64,000 bases of DNA from Microbispora sp. ZYX-F-249 (GTDB lineage Bacteria; Actinomycetota; Actinomycetes; Streptosporangiales; Streptosporangiaceae), in contig NZ_JBDJAW010000030.1 of NCBI RefSeq assembly GCF_039649665.1, positions 1 to 64,000 on the forward strand. Reading direction: 5' to 3'. Of this stretch, positions 13,801 through 24,218 are shown piece after piece. Within the stretch, counting starts at the first letter, position 1, and every line of letters starts with the position of its first letter. The translations under genes were made by a program, and so were the position numbers. The notes beneath the pieces were generated by a model, which saw nothing but the letters and a program-made list of their open reading frames with translations, did not search any database and was not told the DNA's origin.

Positions 13801-14454
13801 ATGCCACACTCCCCCCGCATCGGGCGCGTGCCCGTAAGCGGCCCGGAGTTCAGGGGCGTCTTCGACATCCACCTGACGGTGGCCGCCGACGACGTCGCGC
13901 CACTCGCCGCCTGGGCGCGGGAGAACGACGCCAAGTTCACCCACATCGTGCTCGAGCGTGGGACGGTCCGCTCCCAGCCGATGCTCACCGTCCGCGGCGC
14001 GGGCACGCTCGGCGAGCAGATGACGGCCGCGGCCACCCGGGCCGCGCGGTTACGGGACGAGGGGTTTCCCGTGCTCCGGGTCAAGATCGAGGCGGCGCCC
14101 TGGAACGAGGACGTCCCCCGGACCGCCGAGGCCGCCGCGACCATGCCGGGCCGCTACTTCGAGCATCACGTCAAGGTCGCCGTGCGGGGAGATTTGACGC
14201 CCCTCACCGAACTCGCCGTGACCCACGGCGCGCACGTGTCCCGGAACGCCCGCCGGCGGCGCGACGACGGTTCACACGAGCGGTTCGTCACGCAGCGGTG
14301 CCGGGGTGTCGCTCTGTCCACGGCCGGCCGGCGCTTCGAGGCGCTGCTCGCCGACCTGGAACGGCACGGCTACGCCGTGCTCGAAGCCGAACGCGAGTTC
14401 GTCGTCCACGACGACAACCCCGGTGCCGACCACGGCTGGATCGAGGAGAGATGA
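13801..14454 (+). CDS. Conserved protein of unknown function, partner of the nucleotidyltransferase
   Basis: 217 residues from ATG 13801 (an in-frame ATG at 13789 is possible). The sequence has two similar halves: FDIHLTVAADDVAPLAAWA with KFTHIVLERGTVRSQPM, and FEHHVKVAVRGDLTPLTELA with HVSRNARRR and ERFVTQRC. The D-x-H-x-T-V / E-H-H-V-K-V pairs, each followed by a basic conserved strand, suggest a duplicated ferredoxin-like fold with histidines in pairs, reminiscent of 2H or nucleotide-binding proteins; this is inference. Its stop overlaps the ATG of the AbiEii-type gene by 4 nt (ATGA), so the two are made together. No signal peptide or membrane segment. Confidence 0.75.
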   Translation: MPHSPRIGRVPVSGPEFRGVFDIHLTVAADDVAPLAAWARENDAKFTHIVLERGTVRSQPMLTVRGAGTLGEQMTAAATRAARLRDEGFPVLRVKIEAAPWNEDVPRTAEAAATMPGRYFEHHVKVAVRGDLTPLTELAVTHGAHVSRNARRRRDDGSHERFVTQRCRGVALSTAGRRFEALLADLERHGYAVLEAEREFVVHDDNPGADHGWIEER

Positions 14455-15431
14455 CGTCGAGCTGGGAGCGGTTCCCGTATGTCTCCCTCCCCGGGGGAGT
14501 CACCGTCCCGCCTCGCGGGACGCCGGACTTCCCGGAGACCTACCTGCCGGTCGTGAACCGGCCGGGGATCCGCCAGCCGCCCATCTTCGATCCGGCGCTC
14601 AAGCAGTTCGACCGGGCCTTCCGGGCCGGCGAACCGGTCTTCGACGATCCGGAGACGGGGCGCGGGTGGCGGCGTGCCCGGCGCCGGGCGATCGACCACC
14701 TGGTCCGGGTCGTCGCCGAATCCTCTTGGCAGGAGAACCTCGTGCTGCGCGGCAGTCTGCTGCTCGAGGCGTGGGTCGGCGGGGAGGCGCGTGAGCCGGG
14801 CGATCTCGACTGGGTCGTCGTCCCGCCCACCGTGGACATGGACAGCCCGCTCACCGCCGCGATGTTCAAGGGCGTCATCGCCGCTGCCGTGGCCGGGCCG
14901 GCCGACGGCGCGGTGACCTTCGACCCGGGCGACGTCGCGACGGACGAGATCTGGACCTACGACCGCGTCCCCGGGCGGCGCCTGGTGTTCGTCTGGCGGG
15001 CCGGCGACCTTCCGCCGGGGACCGTGCAGCTCGACTTCACCTTCAACGAGCGCCTGCCCGTCCCGCCGGGGCTCGCCCTGATCCCGCGCACCGGCGGGGG
15101 CGAGCCCACGCCGGTCCTGGCCGCCTCCCCGGAGCTGTCGCTGGCCTGGAAGCTGCTCTGGCTGGCCACCGACGACTACCCGCAGGGCAAGGACCTCTAC
15201 GACGCCGTCCTGCTCGCCGAGCGCGTCCGGCTCCCCCGCGGCCTCCTCGACGCGGTTCTGCGCGACGCGCTCCGCGAGCGCCCGGCGAGCCGGTTCGGCC
15301 CGGAGACCGTCCGGACCCTGCAGGTGGACTGGGACGAGTTCCGCGCCGAGTATCCGCACGTCACCGGGGCCGCCGGCGACTGGCTGGAACGGCTGGCGCG
15401 GGCGCTCGGCCCCACTTTCGCGGAGGGATGA
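14451..15431 (+). CDS. AbiEii/AbiGii-family nucleotidyltransferase
   Basis: 326 residues. The core motif is LVLRGSLLLEAW followed by GDLDWVVV: the Gly-Ser at 101-102 and the Asp-x-Asp at 118-120 are the polymerase-beta-type nucleotidyltransferase signature. A third acid is expected in VQLDFTFNE. A helical C-terminal half (LAWKLLWLATD, GKDLYDAVLLAE) matches the AbiEii/Gii family, whose known members act as toxins in type IV toxin-antitoxin systems by adding nucleotides to tRNA. No AbiEi-type winged-helix antitoxin is adjacent; the coupled upstream gene is a different family, so this may be a housekeeping or novel two-gene module. Confidence 0.85.
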   Translation: MTSSWERFPYVSLPGGVTVPPRGTPDFPETYLPVVNRPGIRQPPIFDPALKQFDRAFRAGEPVFDDPETGRGWRRARRRAIDHLVRVVAESSWQENLVLRGSLLLEAWVGGEAREPGDLDWVVVPPTVDMDSPLTAAMFKGVIAAAVAGPADGAVTFDPGDVATDEIWTYDRVPGRRLVFVWRAGDLPPGTVQLDFTFNERLPVPPGLALIPRTGGGEPTPVLAASPELSLAWKLLWLATDDYPQGKDLYDAVLLAERVRLPRGLLDAVLRDALRERPASRFGPETVRTLQVDWDEFRAEYPHVTGAAGDWLERLARALGPTFAEG

Positions 15432-16228: not shown

Positions 16229-16516
16229 GTGATTGGAACCGTCCGGTCGCTCGCCGACCGAATGCTGGAGCGCCTGGTCCCCTCGACCCGGGCCGAGGCG
16301 GCGCCGTGCAGCGTGGCCTGGGAGCTGTACCAGTGCCCCGGCAACCCCTATCCCACCACCGGCCTGAAGCAGGTCAAGAGGTGCGGCAGCACGGTGACCG
16401 TGCTGCAGACCCTGCCGTGTGGCACGTCGATCTGCGGTGGATACGGCCGGTACGGAGACTTCACTCCCTGGTACCCGTGCCCGTGCGTGAACACGCCGTA
16501 CAACACCTGCCCCTGA
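16229..16516 (+). CDS. Cysteine-rich leader-bearing precursor peptide (8 Cys)
   Basis: 95 residues, GTG start with a strong ribosome site. Residues 1-24 (ending LADRMLERLVPSTRAEA) are cysteine-free, basic and helical, with no hydrophobic core, so this is not a Sec signal. The rest has eight cysteines (27, 36, 52, 64, 69, 84, 86, 94), an even number, and is rich in Gly, Pro, Tyr and Thr, like a disulfide-bonded secreted mini-protein. The leader ends in A-E-A before A-P-C, a type I signal-peptidase-like site; an S26 peptidase is encoded in the same unit. A hairpin and 178 bp separate it from the redox, transport and protease genes, the usual layout of a highly expressed precursor. I do not recognise the family; bioactivity is inferred only. 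Confidence 0.75.
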   Translation: MIGTVRSLADRMLERLVPSTRAEAAPCSVAWELYQCPGNPYPTTGLKQVKRCGSTVTVLQTLPCGTSICGGYGRYGDFTPWYPCPCVNTPYNTCP

Positions 16517-16578
16517 TCGGGCCGGATGACCTGACGGTCCGGGGCTGACCGGGTTCGGGAGCCCTCCGACGCGCAGAG

Positions 16579-16610
16579 GGTGCCGTGACCGGTGAAACGG
16601 TCACGGCGCC
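16579..16610 (+). terminator. Hairpin after the precursor gene (attenuator or mRNA-stability stem)
   Basis: A 13-bp stem (16579-16591 with 16598-16610, one G-T wobble) with a GTGAAA loop. It has no T-tract and the next gene on the same strand begins 85 bp later, so partial read-through is likely. Such stems between precursor and processing genes let the peptide mRNA be more abundant than the rest. Confidence 0.6.
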
Positions 16611-16694
16611 TTGACCGCTCCCGGGCACGCGGGAGGAAACAGGGGGTCGCGAACGGGGAAAAGTCGCGGCGCCCTTATCGGATTAGGGGTTTTG

Positions 16695-17225
16695 ATGGAG
16701 TATGTCCTGGTCTGCTGCCGCCTTCTGATCGGCGCGGTCTTCGTGGCGTCGGCGGTGAGCAAGGTGCGAAGTCGCAGCGCGTACACCTCCTTCCGCAGCG
16801 CCGCCGGGGAGCTGGCGCCCAAGGTGCCGCTGATCCCGCGGGCACTCGTGCCGCCCGCGGTCATCGCCGGTGAGCTCACCGCGGCCCTCCTGCTCGCCGT
16901 CCCGACCACGGTCGGCGCGGGGTTCGTGATCGCGATGGCGTTGCTGGCCGCGTTCACGGCCGCCATCACGATGGCGGTGCGCTCCCGGCGGCGGGTGGCC
17001 TGCAACTGCTTCGGCAGCTCGTCCACGCCGGTGGGACCGGCTCAGCTCATCCGGAACGGCGTGCTGCTGGCCGCCTCGTCGACCGGGGCGGTACTCGCCT
17101 TCGGCACCACCTCGCCGGCCCTGGAGCCGATCGGTGTCTTCACGGCGACGGTCGCCGGCCTGCTGGGAGCCGGCCTGGTGCTGCTCACCGAGGACATCGC
17201 CGAACTGTTCCAGCCGTTTGCCTGA
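16695..17225 (+). CDS. MauE/DoxX-like redox-associated membrane protein
   Basis: 176 residues with four hydrophobic helices. The motif RRRVACNCFGSSST (Cys103-x-Cys105-Phe-Gly) before the third helix is the hallmark of MauE-type proteins, which support disulfide formation in the cysteine-rich small subunit of methylamine dehydrogenase. The start LVCCRLLIGAVFVASAVSKV is typical of the family. ATG 16695 is preceded by AGGGG. With the CxxC protein encoded next it would form a VKOR/DsbB-like electron relay. No methylamine dehydrogenase genes are here, so the likely client is the 8-Cys peptide encoded upstream. Confidence 0.85.
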   Translation: MEYVLVCCRLLIGAVFVASAVSKVRSRSAYTSFRSAAGELAPKVPLIPRALVPPAVIAGELTAALLLAVPTTVGAGFVIAMALLAAFTAAITMAVRSRRRVACNCFGSSSTPVGPAQLIRNGVLLAASSTGAVLAFGTTSPALEPIGVFTATVAGLLGAGLVLLTEDIAELFQPFA

Positions 17226-17271
17226 TCCGTCGCCGAGAGCGGCGACATGACCGTTGAACTTGGGGGTTGTC

Positions 17272-17835
17272 GTGTTGAACATCGTGGCGGTGCTCGTCGT
17301 CGCCGTCGGCGTGCTGTGCGTCCTTAACACCGTCCTCACCCTGGGCATGGCCCGGCGGCTGCGGACCCAGAACGAGCTGTTGGCGAACCCCTCCAGGTTC
17401 ATGCCGGGAAATCACTTCCCGCCGGTGATGCGGGTGGCGGGGGAGCGGACGAGCGCGTTCAGCACCACCACCGTGGACGGCGCGCCGGTCGATGAGACGT
17501 TCTTCGATGAGACCTCCGCGCTGGTGGCGGCGTTCTCGGTCGGCTGCGCCGCGTGTGAGGAGCGGTTCCCCGAGTTCCTCCAGTTCGCCGCGGCCTTCCC
17601 CGGAGGGCGGGAGCGGGTCCTGGCCCTGGTGATCGGCGCCGAAGGCGCCGAGGAGAAGGCCGAGCTGCTGAAGCCGGTCGCCACCGTGGTGGTGGAGGAC
17701 ACCCACGGCGGCCCGCTCTCCACGTCGCTGGGGACCACGGCATACCCGGCGCTGGGGATCATCGAGCCCGGCGGTGTGGTGCGCGCCTCGGGCACGCTGA
17801 TCCAGGATGTGGCGATCGCCCTGGAAAAGGTCTGA
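17272..17835 (+). CDS. Membrane-anchored thioredoxin-fold protein (MauD/TlpA-like)
   Basis: 187 residues from GTG 17272, chosen because GGGGG lies five bases upstream; TTG 17254 is a longer option. Residues 2-26 form a membrane anchor. The outer domain has a redox motif AAFSVGCAACEERFPEF with Cys92 and Cys95 (CxxC), then a cis-proline region TTAYPALGIIEPGG, as in MauD/TlpA proteins. It should form or shuffle disulfides outside the membrane. It lies 46 bp after the MauE-like gene and 3 bp before the ABC transporter gene, so all are one operon. Confidence 0.88.
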   Translation: MLNIVAVLVVAVGVLCVLNTVLTLGMARRLRTQNELLANPSRFMPGNHFPPVMRVAGERTSAFSTTTVDGAPVDETFFDETSALVAAFSVGCAACEERFPEFLQFAAAFPGGRERVLALVIGAEGAEEKAELLKPVATVVVEDTHGGPLSTSLGTTAYPALGIIEPGGVVRASGTLIQDVAIALEKV

Positions 17836-17838
17836 TCG

Positions 17839-19659
17839 ATGCGCGGGATCGTCGAAGCGTTACGGCTGACTTGGCGCGCCAGCCCGTGGTTCACCACGGT
17901 GTTCGTCGCGCTCACCCTGCTGACCGCGCCGATGCCGGTGGTGACGGCGTGGCTGACCAAACTGGTGCTGGACGACATCATCGCCGGAGCCGAGCCCGGC
18001 GCGGTGCTCGGCAAAGCCGTCGGACTCGCCGCCGCCGGCCTGGCGACGGGCCTGATCCCGAATCTCACCCAGTACGCCTCCCGCGAGACCGAACGCCGCG
18101 TCGGACTCCTGGCCCAGGAACGCCTGTTCACGGCGACCGAGCGGTTCGTGGGGATGGCCAGGTTCGAGGACCCGGTCTTCCTCAACCGGATCCAGATGGC
18201 CATGCAGCACGGCGGCAGCACCCCCGGCGTACTGGTCTCGGCCATCCTGTCGACGGTCAGCTCCGTCGTCACCGGCCTGGGCTTCCTCGGCTCGCTGCTG
18301 GTCATCTCCCCCTGGATACCGGTGGTGATCCTGGCCTCGGCCGTCCCGGTGCTGGCCACCGAGATGTGGCTGGCCCGCAGCCGGGCGGACCTGTCGTGGC
18401 GGTTGAGCCCCATCGAACGCCGGGAGATGTTCTTCCGCGACCTGCTCACCAGCACCCAGGCCGCCAAGGAGATCCGGCTGTTCGGCATCGGCGCCTACCT
18501 GCGCGAGCGCATGACGACCCAGCGGCGCAGGTCCAACGTCGAGAACCGGCGGATGGACCTGCGCCAGATCAGCGCCCAGGCGCTGATCGGCCTGCTCGGC
18601 ACCGCGGTGGCGAGCGGCACGCTGTTCTGGGCGGTGCTGGCCGCGGCCGGCGGCGACATCAGCATCGGTGACATCTCCCTGCTGGTGGCCGCGGTCGGCG
18701 GCGTGCAGAGCGCGGCCACGTCGCTGGTGCACACCGTCGCCGGTTTCCACCAGCAGTTGATGCTGTTCGACCACTACCTCCGGGTCGTCGCCGCCGGGCC
18801 CGACCTGCCCGTCGCCTCCCCGCCCGCGGCCATCACCCCGCTGGAGCACGGCATCGTCTTCAAGGACGTGTGGTTCCGCTACTCCCCCGACCACCCCTGG
18901 GTGCTGCGCGGCCTGAACCTCACCATCCCGAACGGACGGACCGTGGGGCTGATCGGACGCAACGGCGCCGGCAAGAGCACTCTGATCAAGCTGCTGTGCC
19001 GGATGTACGATCCCGAGCGCGGCGCCGTCCTGTGGAACGGCGTGGACCTGCGCGAACTGGACCCGGCCGAGCTGCGCGCCCGCATCGGCGCGGTCTTCCA
19101 GGACTACATGGAGTACGACCTGACCGCCGCGGAGAACATCGGCCTGGGCGACCTGGCGTACGTGAGCGACCGCGACCGGATCGTCGCCGCCGCCGAGCGG
19201 GCCGGGGCGCACACGTTCGTCGAGCGGCTGCCCCGCTCCTACGACACCCTGCTGTCCCGGCTGTTCTTCCAGGGGGACGACGTCGGGGGCGCCGACGACG
19301 GTGCCGGGGTGGTCCTGTCCGGAGGCCAGTGGCAGCGCCTGGCGCTGGCCCGCGCCCACCTGCGGTCCGGGCGCGACCTGATGATCCTGGACGAGCCCAG
19401 CTCCGGTCTGGACGCCGAGGCGGAGTACGAGATCCATCACAAGCTGCGGCAGTTCCGGACGGGCCGCACCAACGTGCTCATCTCGCACCGGCTCAACACC
19501 GTGCGCGACGCCGACCTACTGGTCGTGCTCGACGAGGGGGTCGTGGCCGAGCGAGGCACCCACGAGGAGCTGATGGCGTTGAGCGGCGTCTACGCGAGCC
19601 TGTTCTCCATGCAGGCCGAGGGTTACCTGGACGCCCTTCCCGAGCGGGCCACGCGGTGA
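17839..19659 (+). CDS. ABC exporter, fused membrane and ATPase domains
   Basis: 606 residues: an exporter-type membrane domain (about 1-310, six helices) and a nucleotide-binding domain. Walker A is GRNGAGKST (373-381), the signature LSGGQ (493-497) and Walker B LMILDEPSSGLD. There is no N-terminal C39 peptidase, so it cannot cut a double-glycine leader itself. Its overall shape is like LanT-type or McjD-type peptide exporters lacking a protease. The gene follows the CxxC protein by 3 bp and its stop overlaps the signal peptidase start (GTGA). It is the obvious candidate to move the cysteine-rich peptide across the membrane. Confidence 0.92.
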   Translation: MRGIVEALRLTWRASPWFTTVFVALTLLTAPMPVVTAWLTKLVLDDIIAGAEPGAVLGKAVGLAAAGLATGLIPNLTQYASRETERRVGLLAQERLFTATERFVGMARFEDPVFLNRIQMAMQHGGSTPGVLVSAILSTVSSVVTGLGFLGSLLVISPWIPVVILASAVPVLATEMWLARSRADLSWRLSPIERREMFFRDLLTSTQAAKEIRLFGIGAYLRERMTTQRRRSNVENRRMDLRQISAQALIGLLGTAVASGTLFWAVLAAAGGDISIGDISLLVAAVGGVQSAATSLVHTVAGFHQQLMLFDHYLRVVAAGPDLPVASPPAAITPLEHGIVFKDVWFRYSPDHPWVLRGLNLTIPNGRTVGLIGRNGAGKSTLIKLLCRMYDPERGAVLWNGVDLRELDPAELRARIGAVFQDYMEYDLTAAENIGLGDLAYVSDRDRIVAAAERAGAHTFVERLPRSYDTLLSRLFFQGDDVGGADDGAGVVLSGGQWQRLALARAHLRSGRDLMILDEPSSGLDAEAEYEIHHKLRQFRTGRTNVLISHRLNTVRDADLLVVLDEGVVAERGTHEELMALSGVYASLFSMQAEGYLDALPERATR

Positions 19660-20201
19660 CCGGTCCGCTCCTCCTTGTCATCCTGCCGCTCGCGGCCGTC
19701 GCCGCCGCGATGGTCTGGGCGCGCCGGAGCCTGCTGGCGGCGGACGTCCTGGGCACCAGCATGCACCCCACCTACCGGTCCGGTGACAAGGTGCTGGTAC
19801 GGCGCCTGCCCGGCGACCGGGTGCGCCCGGGGGACATCGTGGTGGCCGACATCGCGGTCGTCGCGGAGGACGGGCCGACGCTCCTACCGGGGAGGACCGT
19901 CCGGGAGGAGCACCGCGAACCACGGCTCCGCCTGGCCGACATGGGCGGCCGGTCCGCGTGGCCCCCGGGCGCCGAGGACACCGTCAGCCGGATCGTCAAG
20001 CGGGTCGCCGCCGTCCCCGGGGATCCGGTCCCCGACTCGGTGCCCCGGCGGGCGGGGGAGACCCTGGTCCCGGCGGGGTGCCTGGTCCTCCTCGGCGACA
20101 ACCCCGATGAAAGCGTGGACTCCCGCCATTTCGGCTACGTGCCGGCGAACAGCATGGTCGGGAAGGTGATCCGTACCCTCTCCGGGGGGATCGGGCGCTG
20201 A
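19656..20201 (+). CDS. S26 family signal peptidase
   Basis: 181 residues. An N-terminal hydrophobic anchor (LLLVILPLAAVAAAMVW) is followed by VLGTSMHPTYRSGDKVLVRR with the catalytic Ser35 in the S-M-x-P box. SRIVKRVAAVPGD carries the general-base Lys115, and LLGDNPDESVDSRHFGYV is box E. All catalytic features are present, so an active type I signal peptidase is expected. GTG 19656 overlaps the ABC gene stop by 4 nt. Being in the peptide operon and not near ribosomal or rnhB genes, it is probably dedicated to the leader that ends A-E-A. Confidence 0.9.
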   Translation: MTGPLLLVILPLAAVAAAMVWARRSLLAADVLGTSMHPTYRSGDKVLVRRLPGDRVRPGDIVVADIAVVAEDGPTLLPGRTVREEHREPRLRLADMGGRSAWPPGAEDTVSRIVKRVAAVPGDPVPDSVPRRAGETLVPAGCLVLLGDNPDESVDSRHFGYVPANSMVGKVIRTLSGGIGR

Positions 20202-21160: not shown

Positions 21161-22144
21161 TCACAACTGGATTAGCCCGGGCCGGTGCCGGTGGTCCTCC
21201 TCGTGCGGGGGACCCAGCGGGCGGGCGAGCCGGGGGTGCGGTTCGCGCCGCTCCAGCCAGTGGGTGGTCGACAGGGTCGCCCGCTCGATCATGTCGGCCG
21301 TACCGCGGAAGTCGACGGGCAGCACCTCGACCGGGCACAGCGGCGGCAGCACGTGCAGGCGGGTCCGGCGCGTGTTCTGCCTGATCGAGGCGCTGATGCG
21401 CTGCTCGCTGAGCAGGTTGTAGCCGTGCAGGGCCATGGCGATCGCGGTCGACGGGGCCGCCGGCAGATGGCAGGAGAAGCCCGGCGCCAGCAGGTACGCC
21501 TCGTCGGCGCCCGCGTCCACGGCGTAGTCCAGCGTGGTCAGGTCCGCGACGCCGCCGTCCATGAGCATCCGGTCCCCGATCGTCACGGTGGGATACAGGG
21601 CCGGGATCGCGGTGCTGGCCAGCAGGGCCGGCAGCGCGGGCCCTCGCGACAGGATCACCGGCCGTCCCGTCCGCACATCCGCGGTGAGCACCGACAACGG
21701 CGTCCGCGTCTCCTCCAGCTGCCGGATCGGCAGGATGCGTTCGAGGAACCGCCGCAGGGAGGAGTTGTCGAACAGGTAGTTGCGGCGGCCGAGCATCGCC
21801 GCGGCCAGCGTGGCGGGGTTCAGCGGGAAGGTGTAGTTGAGCACGCCGAGCGCCTGCAGGGCTCCCCGCACGGGGTGGAAGGGCAGGTTTCCCGCGAGAG
21901 CGCGCAGCACGTCGGGCCCGCTCACCGGGTACACGTCGTGGCTGCTCACCGACAGCCACAGCCGGGCCAGCTCCTCCACGCCCTCCGCATCCGGGCGTGC
22001 GGCGTAGTAGGCGCCGTTGAGCGCCCCGATCGACGCGCCGACCACCATGTCGGCGCGGATCCCGTGCGCGGTGAGCGCGCGGAGCATGCCGACCTGCGCG
22101 GCTCCCAGGCTGCCGCCTCCCCACAGGATGAACGCCGTCGTCAT
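21161..22144 (-). CDS. Patatin-like phospholipase
   Basis: 327 residues. The oxyanion loop WGGGSLGAAQVGML is followed by the nucleophile elbow GASIG (Ser38), and the partner Asp lies in LMDGGVADL (about residue 195). The Ser-Asp dyad of patatin lipases is thus complete. It should hydrolyse acyl esters of lipids at or in the membrane. The start at 22144 is supported by GGGGAAG just upstream; an ATG 63 bases further out would add only a basic tail. A CPxxVLPVDF segment near the C-terminus fits bacterial patatins of this size. Confidence 0.9.
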   Translation of the reverse strand: MTTAFILWGGGSLGAAQVGMLRALTAHGIRADMVVGASIGALNGAYYAARPDAEGVEELARLWLSVSSHDVYPVSGPDVLRALAGNLPFHPVRGALQALGVLNYTFPLNPATLAAAMLGRRNYLFDNSSLRRFLERILPIRQLEETRTPLSVLTADVRTGRPVILSRGPALPALLASTAIPALYPTVTIGDRMLMDGGVADLTTLDYAVDAGADEAYLLAPGFSCHLPAAPSTAIAMALHGYNLLSEQRISASIRQNTRRTRLHVLPPLCPVEVLPVDFRGTADMIERATLSTTHWLERREPHPRLARPLGPPHEEDHRHRPGLIQL

Positions 22145-22307
22145 CGGCCGCTTCCCCACGCTCCCCCGGCCCCGGTCCCCCTTCCTACCCGTACGCCCTT
22201 GTTTCACCCGCCGTCCGGAGAGGTGAGGGTTACGTGAGACGTGGGATTTTCGCCGGGCGCTTGTTTATCCTGCCGGGGGCGACAGTTGAAAGGCAGGAAT
22301 CCCCCCG

Positions 22308-24218
22308 ATGGCCTATGCCGACAAGATCTCTCCCATCCTCCGCACCACGCTCGAGCTCCTGCGTGAGGCAGGGCGGCCGCTGCGACCGGAAGAGGTTCGC
22401 AAGGAAGTCGAAGGGAGAGTGACGATACCCCCGGAGCTGCGGGGGCCCAACGCGCACGGCCAGGCGCGGTGGTGGGCGCAACTGGGCTTCCGCACGGGAG
22501 AGGCCGCGTCGCTCGGCTGGATGACCAAACGGAACGGCTGGGCGATCACCGAAGCCGGTGTCCGCGCGCTCGACGACTTCGAGGGCACCGAGCTCTACCG
22601 CGAACTGGCGCGTCAGTACCGGGCGAGGAGGCTGCCGCCGCAGGGTCGTGTCTACAGTGACCCCCGCTGGAACGTCGTCCTGGAGGCCCTGGAGCGTCTG
22701 GAACCGGGCCACTGGACCACGTACGGCGACCTGGCGGCCCTGGTGGGCATGTCCGCGCAGTCGGTGGGGGGCTTCATGGCCGAGACCGCCGACACGGGCC
22801 ATGCGCATCGGGTCCTGCAGTCGGGAGGGCTGATCTCCCCGCAGTTCCGCTGGCTGGACCCGGAACGGACCGATGATCCGCGTGAGGTGCTCGAGAAGGA
22901 GGGCCTGACCTTCGACCACGCCGGCCGGGCCGACCCGCGGCGGCGCGTCACCGCCGACCGGTTCCGCACGATGCTCGCCCAGGCCGGCGTCGTCCTGCCC
23001 CCGGCGGGCGGCCCCGAGCCCACGCCTGCGCCCGACCCGACTCCTGCCGCGTTCGAGCAGTTCCAGCAGAACCTCGGGTACGCCCGGCAGCTCGTGGACG
23101 GGGGCCGCAACCTGGAACAACTCGCGGTCGGCTCCTTCGACGTCACCGACCTCTACCGCGCGGCCTGGACCCAGGCCGTGGCGGCCCTCGACCACTGGGT
23201 CACGCGCGAGATCGTCGACCGGGCCGTGGGCCTCGCGCTGACCCCGGGAGAGCCCCGCCCCCACAAGTTCAACAACTTGAGCATCCCTGTGGAGTTGTTC
23301 GAGGACATCCACCACCGCAAGGAAGACCTCGGCAACGCCTTCCGCGGGCATCTCGAGCGTCATTTCGCCTTCATGACCTTCCAGAACCCGGAGAAGATCA
23401 AGGAAGGGTTCGCGCACGTCAGCACGGTGAACCTCTGGGTGAGAGTCGCCGAGGTCCTGACCGGACAGGACGCGAAGAATCCGATCACCGCGGACGGCGT
23501 CCGTACGAGGCTGCGGGAGATCGCCTGGCGCAGGAACAACATCGCCCACACCGCGGACCACGATCCGGTACGCCCCGGGCAGAAGGCCCCGATCACCGCA
23601 GACGAGGCTGCGGCGACGATCGACTGGCTCGAGACGATGGCCATCGCCATCCAGCTGGCCCTCGGCGACACCCTTCCCGCTCCGAACCCCGACGGCCCGA
23701 GCGACATGCGCGGCGCCCCTTCGGCAGCAGGGGCGGGACAGGCCGCCGGCTCCCGCGTGAAGCGCACGTGGGACGAGCCCGGCTTCCTCGAGGCCCTCGA
23801 GGAGCTCTGCCCTGCCGATGTGCGCGACACGCTGCTGGCCGTCTACCGTCACGCCGAGAGCCATCCGTCTTTTGACGAGTACTACTTCGGCGACGGCGAG
23901 TATCCGTCGGTGACCGCCTGGTTCAACCTCGGCTCCGACAAGGCCTCCGTATGGAGCATCTACACCGGCCCGGCCAAGTCCGTGATGGCCGTCAACTTCG
24001 GGTCCATGCACAACCACGGCGCATCACGACAGCGCATGGCACGGCTCGCCGAGAGGCTCGGCGTCCTCCCGGGATCGGGCCACCTCCGCGATCAGCTCGA
24101 ATCCGCCGGCTACGCGAAATACCCCTCGCTCCAGCCGGCCGCCCTCGCGCGTCCGGAGTCCCGGGAGGTCATCATCGCGGCCCTGAACGAGTTCCTGACC
24201 GGCGAGCCAGCCCGCTGA
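22308..24218 (+). CDS. Multidomain protein: Mrr-like winged helix, alkyltransferase-like domain, HEPN RNase-like domain, unknown C-terminal domain
   Basis: 636 residues. Residues 1-90 resemble the winged helix at the N-terminus of Mrr restriction proteins. Residues about 115-220 resemble the DNA-binding domain of O6-alkylguanine transferases and ATL proteins: GHWTTYGDLAALVG (Trp136) and HAHRVLQSGG (165-174), where the PCHRV active Cys is replaced by Ala166. After a Pro/Ala linker, residues about 255-455 are helical with RRNNIAH: Arg409-x4-His414 is the HEPN ribonuclease motif. A further 150-residue alpha/beta domain (VTAWFNLGSDKASVWSIY) is unrecognised. A DNA-sensing module plus an RNase toxin in one chain suggests a phage-defence or abortive-infection effector. 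Ribosome site AGGCAGGA precedes ATG 22308. Monocistronic. Confidence 0.7.
   Translation: MAYADKISPILRTTLELLREAGRPLRPEEVRKEVEGRVTIPPELRGPNAHGQARWWAQLGFRTGEAASLGWMTKRNGWAITEAGVRALDDFEGTELYRELARQYRARRLPPQGRVYSDPRWNVVLEALERLEPGHWTTYGDLAALVGMSAQSVGGFMAETADTGHAHRVLQSGGLISPQFRWLDPERTDDPREVLEKEGLTFDHAGRADPRRRVTADRFRTMLAQAGVVLPPAGGPEPTPAPDPTPAAFEQFQQNLGYARQLVDGGRNLEQLAVGSFDVTDLYRAAWTQAVAALDHWVTREIVDRAVGLALTPGEPRPHKFNNLSIPVELFEDIHHRKEDLGNAFRGHLERHFAFMTFQNPEKIKEGFAHVSTVNLWVRVAEVLTGQDAKNPITADGVRTRLREIAWRRNNIAHTADHDPVRPGQKAPITADEAAATIDWLETMAIAIQLALGDTLPAPNPDGPSDMRGAPSAAGAGQAAGSRVKRTWDEPGFLEALEELCPADVRDTLLAVYRHAESHPSFDEYYFGDGEYPSVTAWFNLGSDKASVWSIYTGPAKSVMAVNFGSMHNHGASRQRMARLAERLGVLPGSGHLRDQLESAGYAKYPSLQPAALARPESREVIIAALNEFLTGEPAR

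What the first reader, a model, noticed from the sequence alone, without database searches (positions are those of the whole stretch)
16229..20201. Undescribed operon for a leader-bearing, eight-cysteine peptide with its own disulfide, export and leader-cutting machinery
Five genes on one strand: an 8-Cys, 95-residue precursor; a MauE-like membrane protein (CxCFG); a membrane-anchored CxxC thioredoxin-fold protein; an ABC exporter without a C39 peptidase; an S26 signal peptidase with an intact Ser35/Lys115 dyad. The last genes are 3 bp apart or overlapping. MauE/MauD are known to help fold the cysteine-rich subunit of methylamine dehydrogenase, but no such enzyme is present. Inference: a new class of disulfide-rich secreted peptide made outside the usual RiPP enzyme families.
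Basis: partly seen in the sequence, partly recalled or inferred. Interest (0 to 1): 0.88.

Follow-up and report, generated by a model that had tools for sequence, protein, structure and literature searches.

The report
Actinobacterial disulfide-rich peptide secretion operon
A soil actinobacterium carries a five-gene unit that seems to make, fold, trim and export a small peptide cross-linked through its cysteines, and relatives of this unit pair one conserved leader with very many different cysteine-rich peptides, rather like a bacterial counterpart of a cone-snail peptide library.

Summary
Observation confirmed. The genes at 16229-20201 encode a precursor (95 aa, 8 Cys), MauE, a membrane-anchored CxxC thioredoxin-fold protein, an ABC exporter and an S26 peptidase. 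The host genome has four such loci. In 150 genomes of the family, 78 of 88 precursor hits lie within 10 kb of a homologue of the CxxC gene. Anchored on the ABC gene instead, 73 of 80 named loci encode a precursor with the same leader. Leaders are mostly 24 aa, ending A-x-A; cores are hypervariable (122 cysteine spacings in 180 distinct peptides). Core cysteine number is even in 178 of 180, against 46-61% for other residues, which complete disulfide pairing would explain. Charge bias places the CxxC domain, the MauE CxCFG and probably S26 on the cytosolic side, so trimming and thiol chemistry may precede export. 'Undescribed' is too strong: decRiPPter (PMC7794033) flagged mauE-containing candidate RiPP families with Cys-rich precursors. 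Chemistry, activity and topology are untested. Verdict: a real, widespread, uncharacterised RiPP-like class.

The parts
16229..16516 (+). precursor peptide gene, 95 aa, 8 Cys
   Evidence: ORF; leader HMM E 9e-08; homologues
16229..16300 (+). 24-residue leader MIGTVRSLADRMLERLVPSTRAEA, ending A-x-A
   Evidence: P18, A22 and A24 invariant in 13 precursors found without a motif filter; 24 aa in 128 of 180 leaders
16301..16513 (+). core peptide, 71 aa, 8 Cys
   Evidence: all cysteines lie after the leader; even-number rule
16577..16612 (+). 15-bp stem-loop in the transcript between precursor and mauE (possible attenuator or processing site)
   Evidence: fold z-score -3.66 for 16514-16694; no terminator-like T-run; role is inference
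16695..17225 (+). MauE-family membrane protein, 176 aa
   Evidence: PF07291 84.1 bits
17001..17015 (+). CNCFG motif of MauE, shortly after the basic stretch RSRRR
   Evidence: CxCFG in 140 of 142 homologues, mean 2.70 K/R in the 10 residues before it
17272..17835 (+). N-terminally membrane-anchored thioredoxin-fold protein (MauD/TlpA-like; alternative TTG start 17254)
   Evidence: profile match to thioredoxin-fold structures; paralogues
17545..17556 (+). CAAC redox motif
   Evidence: both Cys invariant in the three paralogues; a CxxC was recognised in 176 of 181 homologues
17839..19659 (+). ABC exporter, fused membrane and ATPase parts, no C39 peptidase domain, 606 aa
   Evidence: PF00005 99.2 bits; PF00664 below its cut-off; exporter-type NCBIfam matches
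19656..20201 (+). S26-type (signal-peptidase-like) peptidase, 181 aa, one N-terminal TM
   Evidence: PF10502 71.1 bits; TIGR02227 70.1 bits, cut-off 47
19758..19760 (+). catalytic Ser35 codon of S26
   Evidence: invariant in A6; SM.P-type motif in 172 of 190 homologues
19998..20000 (+). catalytic Lys115 codon of S26
   Evidence: invariant in A6; Lys motif in 173 of 190 homologues

Best explanation
The operon makes and exports a ribosomal peptide whose eight core cysteines end up in four disulfides; it is one of a large actinobacterial class. Proposed path: (1) the precursor is made with a 24-aa amphipathic, non-Sec leader (motif G/A-D-R-L-L-x3-V-P-x3-A-x-A); (2) the leader docks the precursor on the membrane-bound machinery; (3) the MauE plus CxxC thioredoxin-fold pair controls thiol oxidation of the core; (4) the dedicated S26 peptidase cuts after A-x-A, taking the role that a C39 domain plays in peptidase-containing ABC exporters; (5) the ABC protein exports the mature peptide. 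Shown by sequence: the genes, the conserved linkage, the leader motif, core hypervariability, even cysteine number and charge bias. Inferred: disulfides, the order of steps, the cleavage agent, sidedness and any biological role, most likely microbial antagonism because the cores change faster than the leader. The confidence given is for the class and the five roles, not for the order or the side of the membrane.
For: Linkage: 78 of 88 precursor hits within 10 kb of a CxxC-protein hit, 72 of those 78 on the same strand. In 114 fetched loci MauE is found in 94, ABC in 103, S26 in 104 and a leader-HMM precursor in 95. ABC-anchored named set (best 80 of 565 relatives): CxxC protein 78, S26 74, MauE 65, precursor 73; the anchor is independent but some loci are the same as in the survey (13 of its 77 distinct peptides are identical to survey peptides). 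Disulfides: core Cys even in 178 of 180 distinct peptides (4, 6, 8, 10 or 12), in 120 of 122 spacing frameworks and in 69 of 71 representatives sharing at most one core 4-mer, while ten other residues are even in 46-61%; 15 of 15 leader-HMM hits in 20 further loci are even. Leader cutting: A at -1 in 95%, A at -3 in 93%, P at -7 in 91% of 180 leaders, Cys in 1; 187 of 195 precursor hits (both sets, repeats included) lie in loci with an S26 gene; four loci of one genus of another family have no linked S26, and their precursors lack A-x-A before the first Cys. Leader not Sec-like (max 10-residue hydropathy mean 1.07). Core changes faster: pN/pS 0.61 and 0.89 against 0.26 and 0.25 for the leader.
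Against: No chemistry, expression or activity data. The leader percentages are partly built in: the seeds of the leader HMM were picked with a P...A-x-A pattern and at least 4 Cys, so divergent leaders are under-counted and the S26/A-x-A link cannot be judged cleanly; the 13 precursors, found without that filter, do show P18, A22 and A24 invariant. 10 of 88 precursor hits are not within 10 kb of a CxxC hit. In 8 of 114 loci I found no small Cys-rich gene and 3 are doubtful; 7 of 80 named loci and 7 of the 20 further loci gave no leader-HMM hit. 8 locus entries without detected S26 keep A-x-A (L148 and L195 are cut by contig ends, L108 and L199 are the same place). MauE was not detected in 20 of 114 and 15 of 80 loci. 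Odd peptides exist: 2 of the 180 and 2 divergent ones found by eye (L019, L039). Core pN/pS stays below 1. The AlphaFold model of the precursor is poor (pLDDT 58).
Confidence: 0.78

Rival explanations
1. Same peptide class, but the redox pair and S26 act outside the cell: the ABC protein exports the whole precursor, S26 then cuts at A-x-A as a normal signal peptidase does, and MauE/CxxC oxidise the peptide on the outer face. (A variant of the best explanation in sidedness and order, so the two confidences do not exclude each other.)
For: Ordinary type I signal peptidases and many TlpA/ResA-type proteins work outside (established knowledge). A-x-A is the usual signal peptidase site; for cinnamycin-type peptides a general type I signal peptidase is postulated to cut AFA/AYA (passage in PMC12837462). 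A MauE of the host outside the four loci (L232) also has a basic stretch before its CGCFG, so that feature is not special to this class, and MauD/MauE of known systems were not tested as a control.
Against: Charge bias: 179 of 181 CxxC homologues have more K/R after the TM than before, 2 ties (means 3.78 and 0.02). S26: 154 cytosol-facing, 19 outward, 17 tied of 190 in a first pass; 141, 11 and 13 of 165 assessable in a stricter pass. MauE CxCFG lies between TM3 and TM4 after a basic loop. The host's two LepB-type peptidases and one lipoprotein thioredoxin have their basic residues before the TM, judged by eye.
Confidence: 0.4
2. The MauE/CxxC pair is a reducing relay that keeps the core cysteines reduced until export; oxidation outside is spontaneous or done by general enzymes.
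For: Predicted cytosol-facing sites sit in a reducing compartment; the CxxC profile matches ResA among other thioredoxin-fold proteins, and ResA-type proteins act as reductants (recalled).
Against: Export of a reduced peptide with 4-12 cysteines would risk misfolding (inference); MauE has been speculated to help form disulfides in methylamine dehydrogenase (as stated in PMC7794033).
Confidence: 0.25
3. The peptides are secreted metal-binding (metallophore or metallothionein-like) peptides rather than disulfide-stabilised ones.
For: Exported Cys-containing RiPPs that chelate copper exist (bufferins; abstract start, passages of PMC12452194), and doxX genes occur in their clusters.
Against: Metal binding does not require even cysteine numbers, yet 178 of 180 are even; 122 spacing patterns do not fit one metal site; no MNIO-type domain was found in the operon or in the six neighbouring genes tested.
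Confidence: 0.08
4. The small ORF is unrelated to the four downstream genes, which serve general redox and export functions.
For: In 8 of 114 loci no small Cys-rich ORF was found.
Against: Linkage counts; four paralogous loci in one genome, each with its own precursor.
Confidence: 0.02

Closest known systems
decRiPPter mauE-containing candidate RiPP families in Streptomyces (PMC7794033; passages and section 7 read)
   Same: mauE, one family also mauD, clusters filtered for transporter and peptidase genes, precursors of at least 8 Cys; cites S. viridosporus T7A, and this module occurs in S. viridosporus NRRL 2414 (L191).
   Different: Reported as candidates from genome mining; the text I read gives no leader motif, even-cysteine rule or topology. 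The S. viridosporus precursor found here has 6 Cys, so identity of the loci is not established (supplement not available).
Methylamine dehydrogenase maturation proteins MauE/MauD
   Same: MauE family (PF07291) and a membrane-anchored CxxC thioredoxin-fold partner.
   Different: Here tied to small precursors, an ABC exporter and S26; no MADH light-chain hit in the genome (inconclusive).
Actifensins (Actinomyces defensin-like bacteriocins, PMC6989792; passages read)
   Same: Actinobacterial, leader plus Cys-rich core, disulfides, ABC genes, several copies per operon.
   Different: Cluster described with subtilisin-like protease, alpha/beta hydrolase and LuxR regulator; GA-type cleavage site; one conserved defensin framework instead of many.
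Peptidase-containing (C39) ABC exporters of double-glycine bacteriocins (recalled)
   Same: Leader-bearing precursor, dedicated exporter and dedicated leader peptidase.
   Different: No C39 domain, no GG motif; a separate S26 peptidase and A-x-A site.
Nickel superoxide dismutase maturation protease (TIGR02754, S26)
   Same: S26-type protease removing an N-terminal extension (family role recalled); 45.6 bits.
   Different: Below that model's cut-off of 63.25; here with a TM anchor and linked to peptides.

Membership tests
RiPP-type biosynthetic operon | ribosomal precursor with conserved leader and variable core | tested here: met
RiPP-type biosynthetic operon | co-encoded modification, leader-removal and export genes | tested here: met
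   (gene level; functions inferred)
RiPP-type biosynthetic operon | post-translationally modified product | not testable with these tools
   needs mass spectrometry; even cysteine number is indirect
decRiPPter mauE candidate families | mauE plus precursor of at least 8 Cys, with transporter and peptidase genes | tested here: met
   window operon; description
decRiPPter mauE candidate families | sequence identity with the published candidate precursors | not testable with these tools
CefA Cys-every-fifth RiPP (NF038108) | score above the curated cut-off of 30 bits | tested here: not met
   13.7 bits; 0 of 35 diverse precursors match any NCBIfam family at E 0.01
Lanthipeptides | linked lanthionine synthetase | tested here: not met
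   no such Pfam domain in the five genes or the six neighbouring genes tested; one neighbouring ORF (14393-15428) not tested
C39 ABC (double-glycine) bacteriocin exporters | N-terminal C39 peptidase domain and GG-type leader | tested here: not met
MADH maturation system | methylamine dehydrogenase light chain present | tested here: inconclusive
   PF02975: no hit, but no control genome rang
S26 signal peptidase family | Ser/Lys dyad and S26 profile | tested here: met
Actifensin/defensin-like bacteriocins | defensin-type C6 framework and afn gene set | tested here: not met
   window core has 8 Cys and another gene set, compared with passages of PMC6989792

The most novel reading that the evidence does not exclude
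A membrane-bound, cytosol-facing factory that oxidises and trims disulfide-rich peptides before export: MauE and a reverse-anchored thioredoxin-fold protein handle core thiols on the inner face, and a reverse-anchored S26 peptidase cuts A-x-A leaders in the cytosol and hands the folded peptide to an ABC exporter. It would be a leader-directed folding platform tolerant of more than a hundred cysteine frameworks.
Probability: 0.3. Interest if true: 0.88.

Novelty: new variant of a known kind. Interest (0 to 1): 0.73.

Why it matters
If true, soil actinobacteria hold a large, almost untouched library of disulfide-rich peptides with one shared leader and a compact processing module. That gives a simple genome-mining rule (leader motif plus even core cysteines plus MauE/CxxC/ABC/S26) and possibly a general way to make disulfide-rich peptides in bacteria. 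It also gives MauE/MauD-type proteins, whose mechanism is poorly known, a small and tractable substrate, and it makes directly testable whether disulfides can be installed on the cytosolic side before export.

Tried and rejected
Lanthipeptide or MNIO-type RiPP: rejected for the window because no such domain is in the operon or the six tested neighbours. CefA (NF038108): 13.7 bits, below its cut-off. PDB sequence matches of the precursor profile were at chance level (best E 0.97). The AlphaFold model of the precursor was too weak (pLDDT 58, pTM 0.36), so no fold search was made. Clustering cores by single linkage was uninformative (chains into 8 or 2 clusters); I used distinct frameworks and low-overlap representatives instead. 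Promoter and terminator scan: nothing found. Literature: ten searches were made, the last two for comparison systems; among the listings of the other eight, only the decRiPPter paper looked like a direct forerunner. Most listed papers were not opened, and the library lacks most subscription papers.

Rows left out of counts: of 69 regions with and 55 without an A2 precursor hit (CxxC hits with E below 1e-14), 60 and 54 were fetched. One false leader hit (L110 at 105, minus strand) was dropped. Peptides found only by eye and those are not in the 180. 25 of 190 S26 sequences were not assessed (18 without the motif, 7 too short). The leader HMM hits and 56 were cut at E 0.05, those at E 1.
Full report
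WHAT IS THERE. The window lies in an unnamed 8.78-Mb genome. I take it to be Microbispora: the 8 named precursor homologues are all Microbispora, and a congener's single contig of 7,371,534 bases matches the length listed for Microbispora sp. NBC_01189. Pfam identifies MauE, the ABC ATPase and S26; the CxxC protein is joined to thioredoxin-fold proteins through its family profile. Flanking genes on both sides point the other way: DUF4916/NUDIX upstream, a protein without Pfam match and a patatin downstream.

PARALOGUES. A search with the precursor alone brought up two more precursors in the same genome, matched over the leader. Both lie beside their own MauE, CxxC, ABC and S26 genes. A fourth locus, C5 at about 154 kb (L082), appeared in the family survey. 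The four share the leader; the cores differ and have 8 (window), 6 (C62), 6 (C42) and 8 (C5) cysteines.

LINKAGE. In 150 genomes of the family the 13-sequence precursor profile gave 88 hits in 43 genomes at E 0.01, and the CxxC profile 140 hits in 59 genomes at E 1e-6. 78 of the 88 precursor hits are within 10 kb of a CxxC hit, 72 of 78 on the same strand; 10 are not. I fetched 114 loci around CxxC hits, 60 with and 54 without such a precursor hit. MauE is found in 52 of 60 and 42 of 54, ABC in 58 and 45, S26 in 57 and 47. A leader-only profile finds precursors in 60 of 60 and 35 of 54 loci. Its seeds had a P...A-x-A pattern and at least 4 Cys; the hits themselves were not filtered for cysteine. 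By eye I add L016, L019, L039, L043, L047, L051, L053 and L060. L030, L034 and L045 are doubtful. In L011, L015, L020, L025, L027, L028, L046 and L058 none was found.

SECOND ANCHOR. 78 loci have the CxxC gene, 74 S26, 65 MauE, 63 all four with ABC, and 73 a precursor. Of the 7 misses (L166, L169, L170, L176, L180, L185, L220), L169 and L170 are cut by contig ends. Some of these loci are the same as in the survey: 13 of 77 distinct peptides are identical. Across 394 genomes of the class, 41 have a CxxC hit at 1e-6, the strong ones in the window's family and one other family. From that search I fetched 20 more loci: 7 from the other family, 7 from the window's family, 6 with weak hits. 13 of the 20 gave leader-profile hits, 15 in all, each with an even cysteine number.

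LEADER AND CORE. Over 180 distinct precursors the leader is 24 aa in 128; A is at -1 in 95%, A at -3 in 93%, P at -7 in 91%, R at -14 in 74%, D at -15 in 68%; one leader contains Cys. The seed pattern favours P and A-x-A, so these figures are partly built in; 13 precursors found without it have P18, A22 and A24 invariant. The leader has no Sec-type hydrophobic stretch. Mean pairwise identity is 0.40 for leaders and 0.25 for cores. In two Microbispora groups pN/pS is 0.26 and 0.25 in the leader and 0.61 and 0.89 in the core: faster core change, but not above 1.

THE EVEN-CYSTEINE RULE. Core cysteine number is 4, 6, 8, 10 or 12 in 178 of 180 peptides; the exceptions have 7 and 11. Ten other residues are even in 46-61%. 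The rule holds for 120 of 122 spacing frameworks and 69 of 71 low-overlap representatives. The one peptide with an odd total in the family set has its extra cysteine in the leader. Two divergent peptides found by eye (L019, L039) have 7. Cysteines thus seem to be gained and lost in pairs, which complete disulfide pairing predicts and lanthionine or metal binding does not require. Relatedness inflates the raw count, hence the framework and representative counts.

SIDEDNESS. 179 of 181 CxxC homologues carry more K/R after the N-terminal TM than before it, 2 tie (means 3.78 and 0.02). S26: 154 cytosol-facing, 19 outward, 17 tied of 190; in a stricter pass 141, 11 and 13 of 165. MauE: CxCFG in 140 of 142, with on average 2.70 K/R in the ten residues before it. 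The host's two LepB-type peptidases and a lipoprotein thioredoxin show the usual outward pattern, judged by eye. Against special weight for MauE, another MauE of the host (L232) has a similar basic stretch, and known MauD/MauE were not used as controls. By the positive-inside rule (established knowledge) the active sites face the cytosol. This is prediction only. It would put leader cutting and thiol chemistry before export, as C39 domains do in peptidase-containing exporters (recalled).

WHO CUTS THE LEADER. 187 of 195 precursor hits lie in loci with S26. Apart from two LepB-type genes, every S26 match of the host genome lies in one of the four precursor loci. Four loci of one genus of another family have MauE, CxxC and ABC matches but no linked S26, and their 8-Cys precursors lack A-x-A before the first Cys; those four genomes hold one or two S26 genes elsewhere. 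Against this, 8 locus entries without detected S26 keep A-x-A, and the search favoured A-x-A leaders to begin with.

PRIOR ART. decRiPPter (PMC7794033; passages and section 7 read) lists three candidate RiPP families with mauE, one also with mauD, each with a precursor of at least 8 Cys, in Streptomyces, and suggests a role in precursor modification. The module occurs in S. viridosporus NRRL 2414 (L191), a species named there, although the precursor I find has 6 Cys. No NCBIfam or Pfam family covers any of 35 diverse precursors at E 0.01. The other literature searches showed no characterised member in their listings.

VERDICT. Real, widespread and, within the searches made, uncharacterised; the idea of a class was anticipated as a mining candidate. 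Added here: the leader rule, the even-cysteine rule, the size of the framework repertoire, S26 as a near-constant partner and the predicted cytosolic sidedness.

Noticed in passing
L136-L139: MauE-CxxC-ABC loci of one genus of another family without a linked S26; their 8-Cys precursors have a shorter leader without A-x-A before the first Cys.
   Followed up: partly
L099:4781-10667: Seven different leader-bearing 6-Cys precursors around one machinery set.
   Followed up: no
window 16577-16612: 15-bp stem-loop between precursor and mauE without a T-run; may set a high precursor-to-machinery ratio.
   Followed up: partly
L006 and L007, next to the paralogous operons: Large ORFs that look like AfsR/SARP-type regulators (judged by eye from the translations, not tested).
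   Followed up: no
L232 (G000 contig C18, about 21938-22339): A MauE gene outside the four precursor loci, also with a basic stretch before its CGCFG motif; a weaker sixth MauE match lies on C25 (L237).
   Followed up: no
L064, L074-L077, L079 and L096: S26 gene on the strand opposite to the CxxC gene, so S26 is linked but not always co-transcribed.
   Followed up: no
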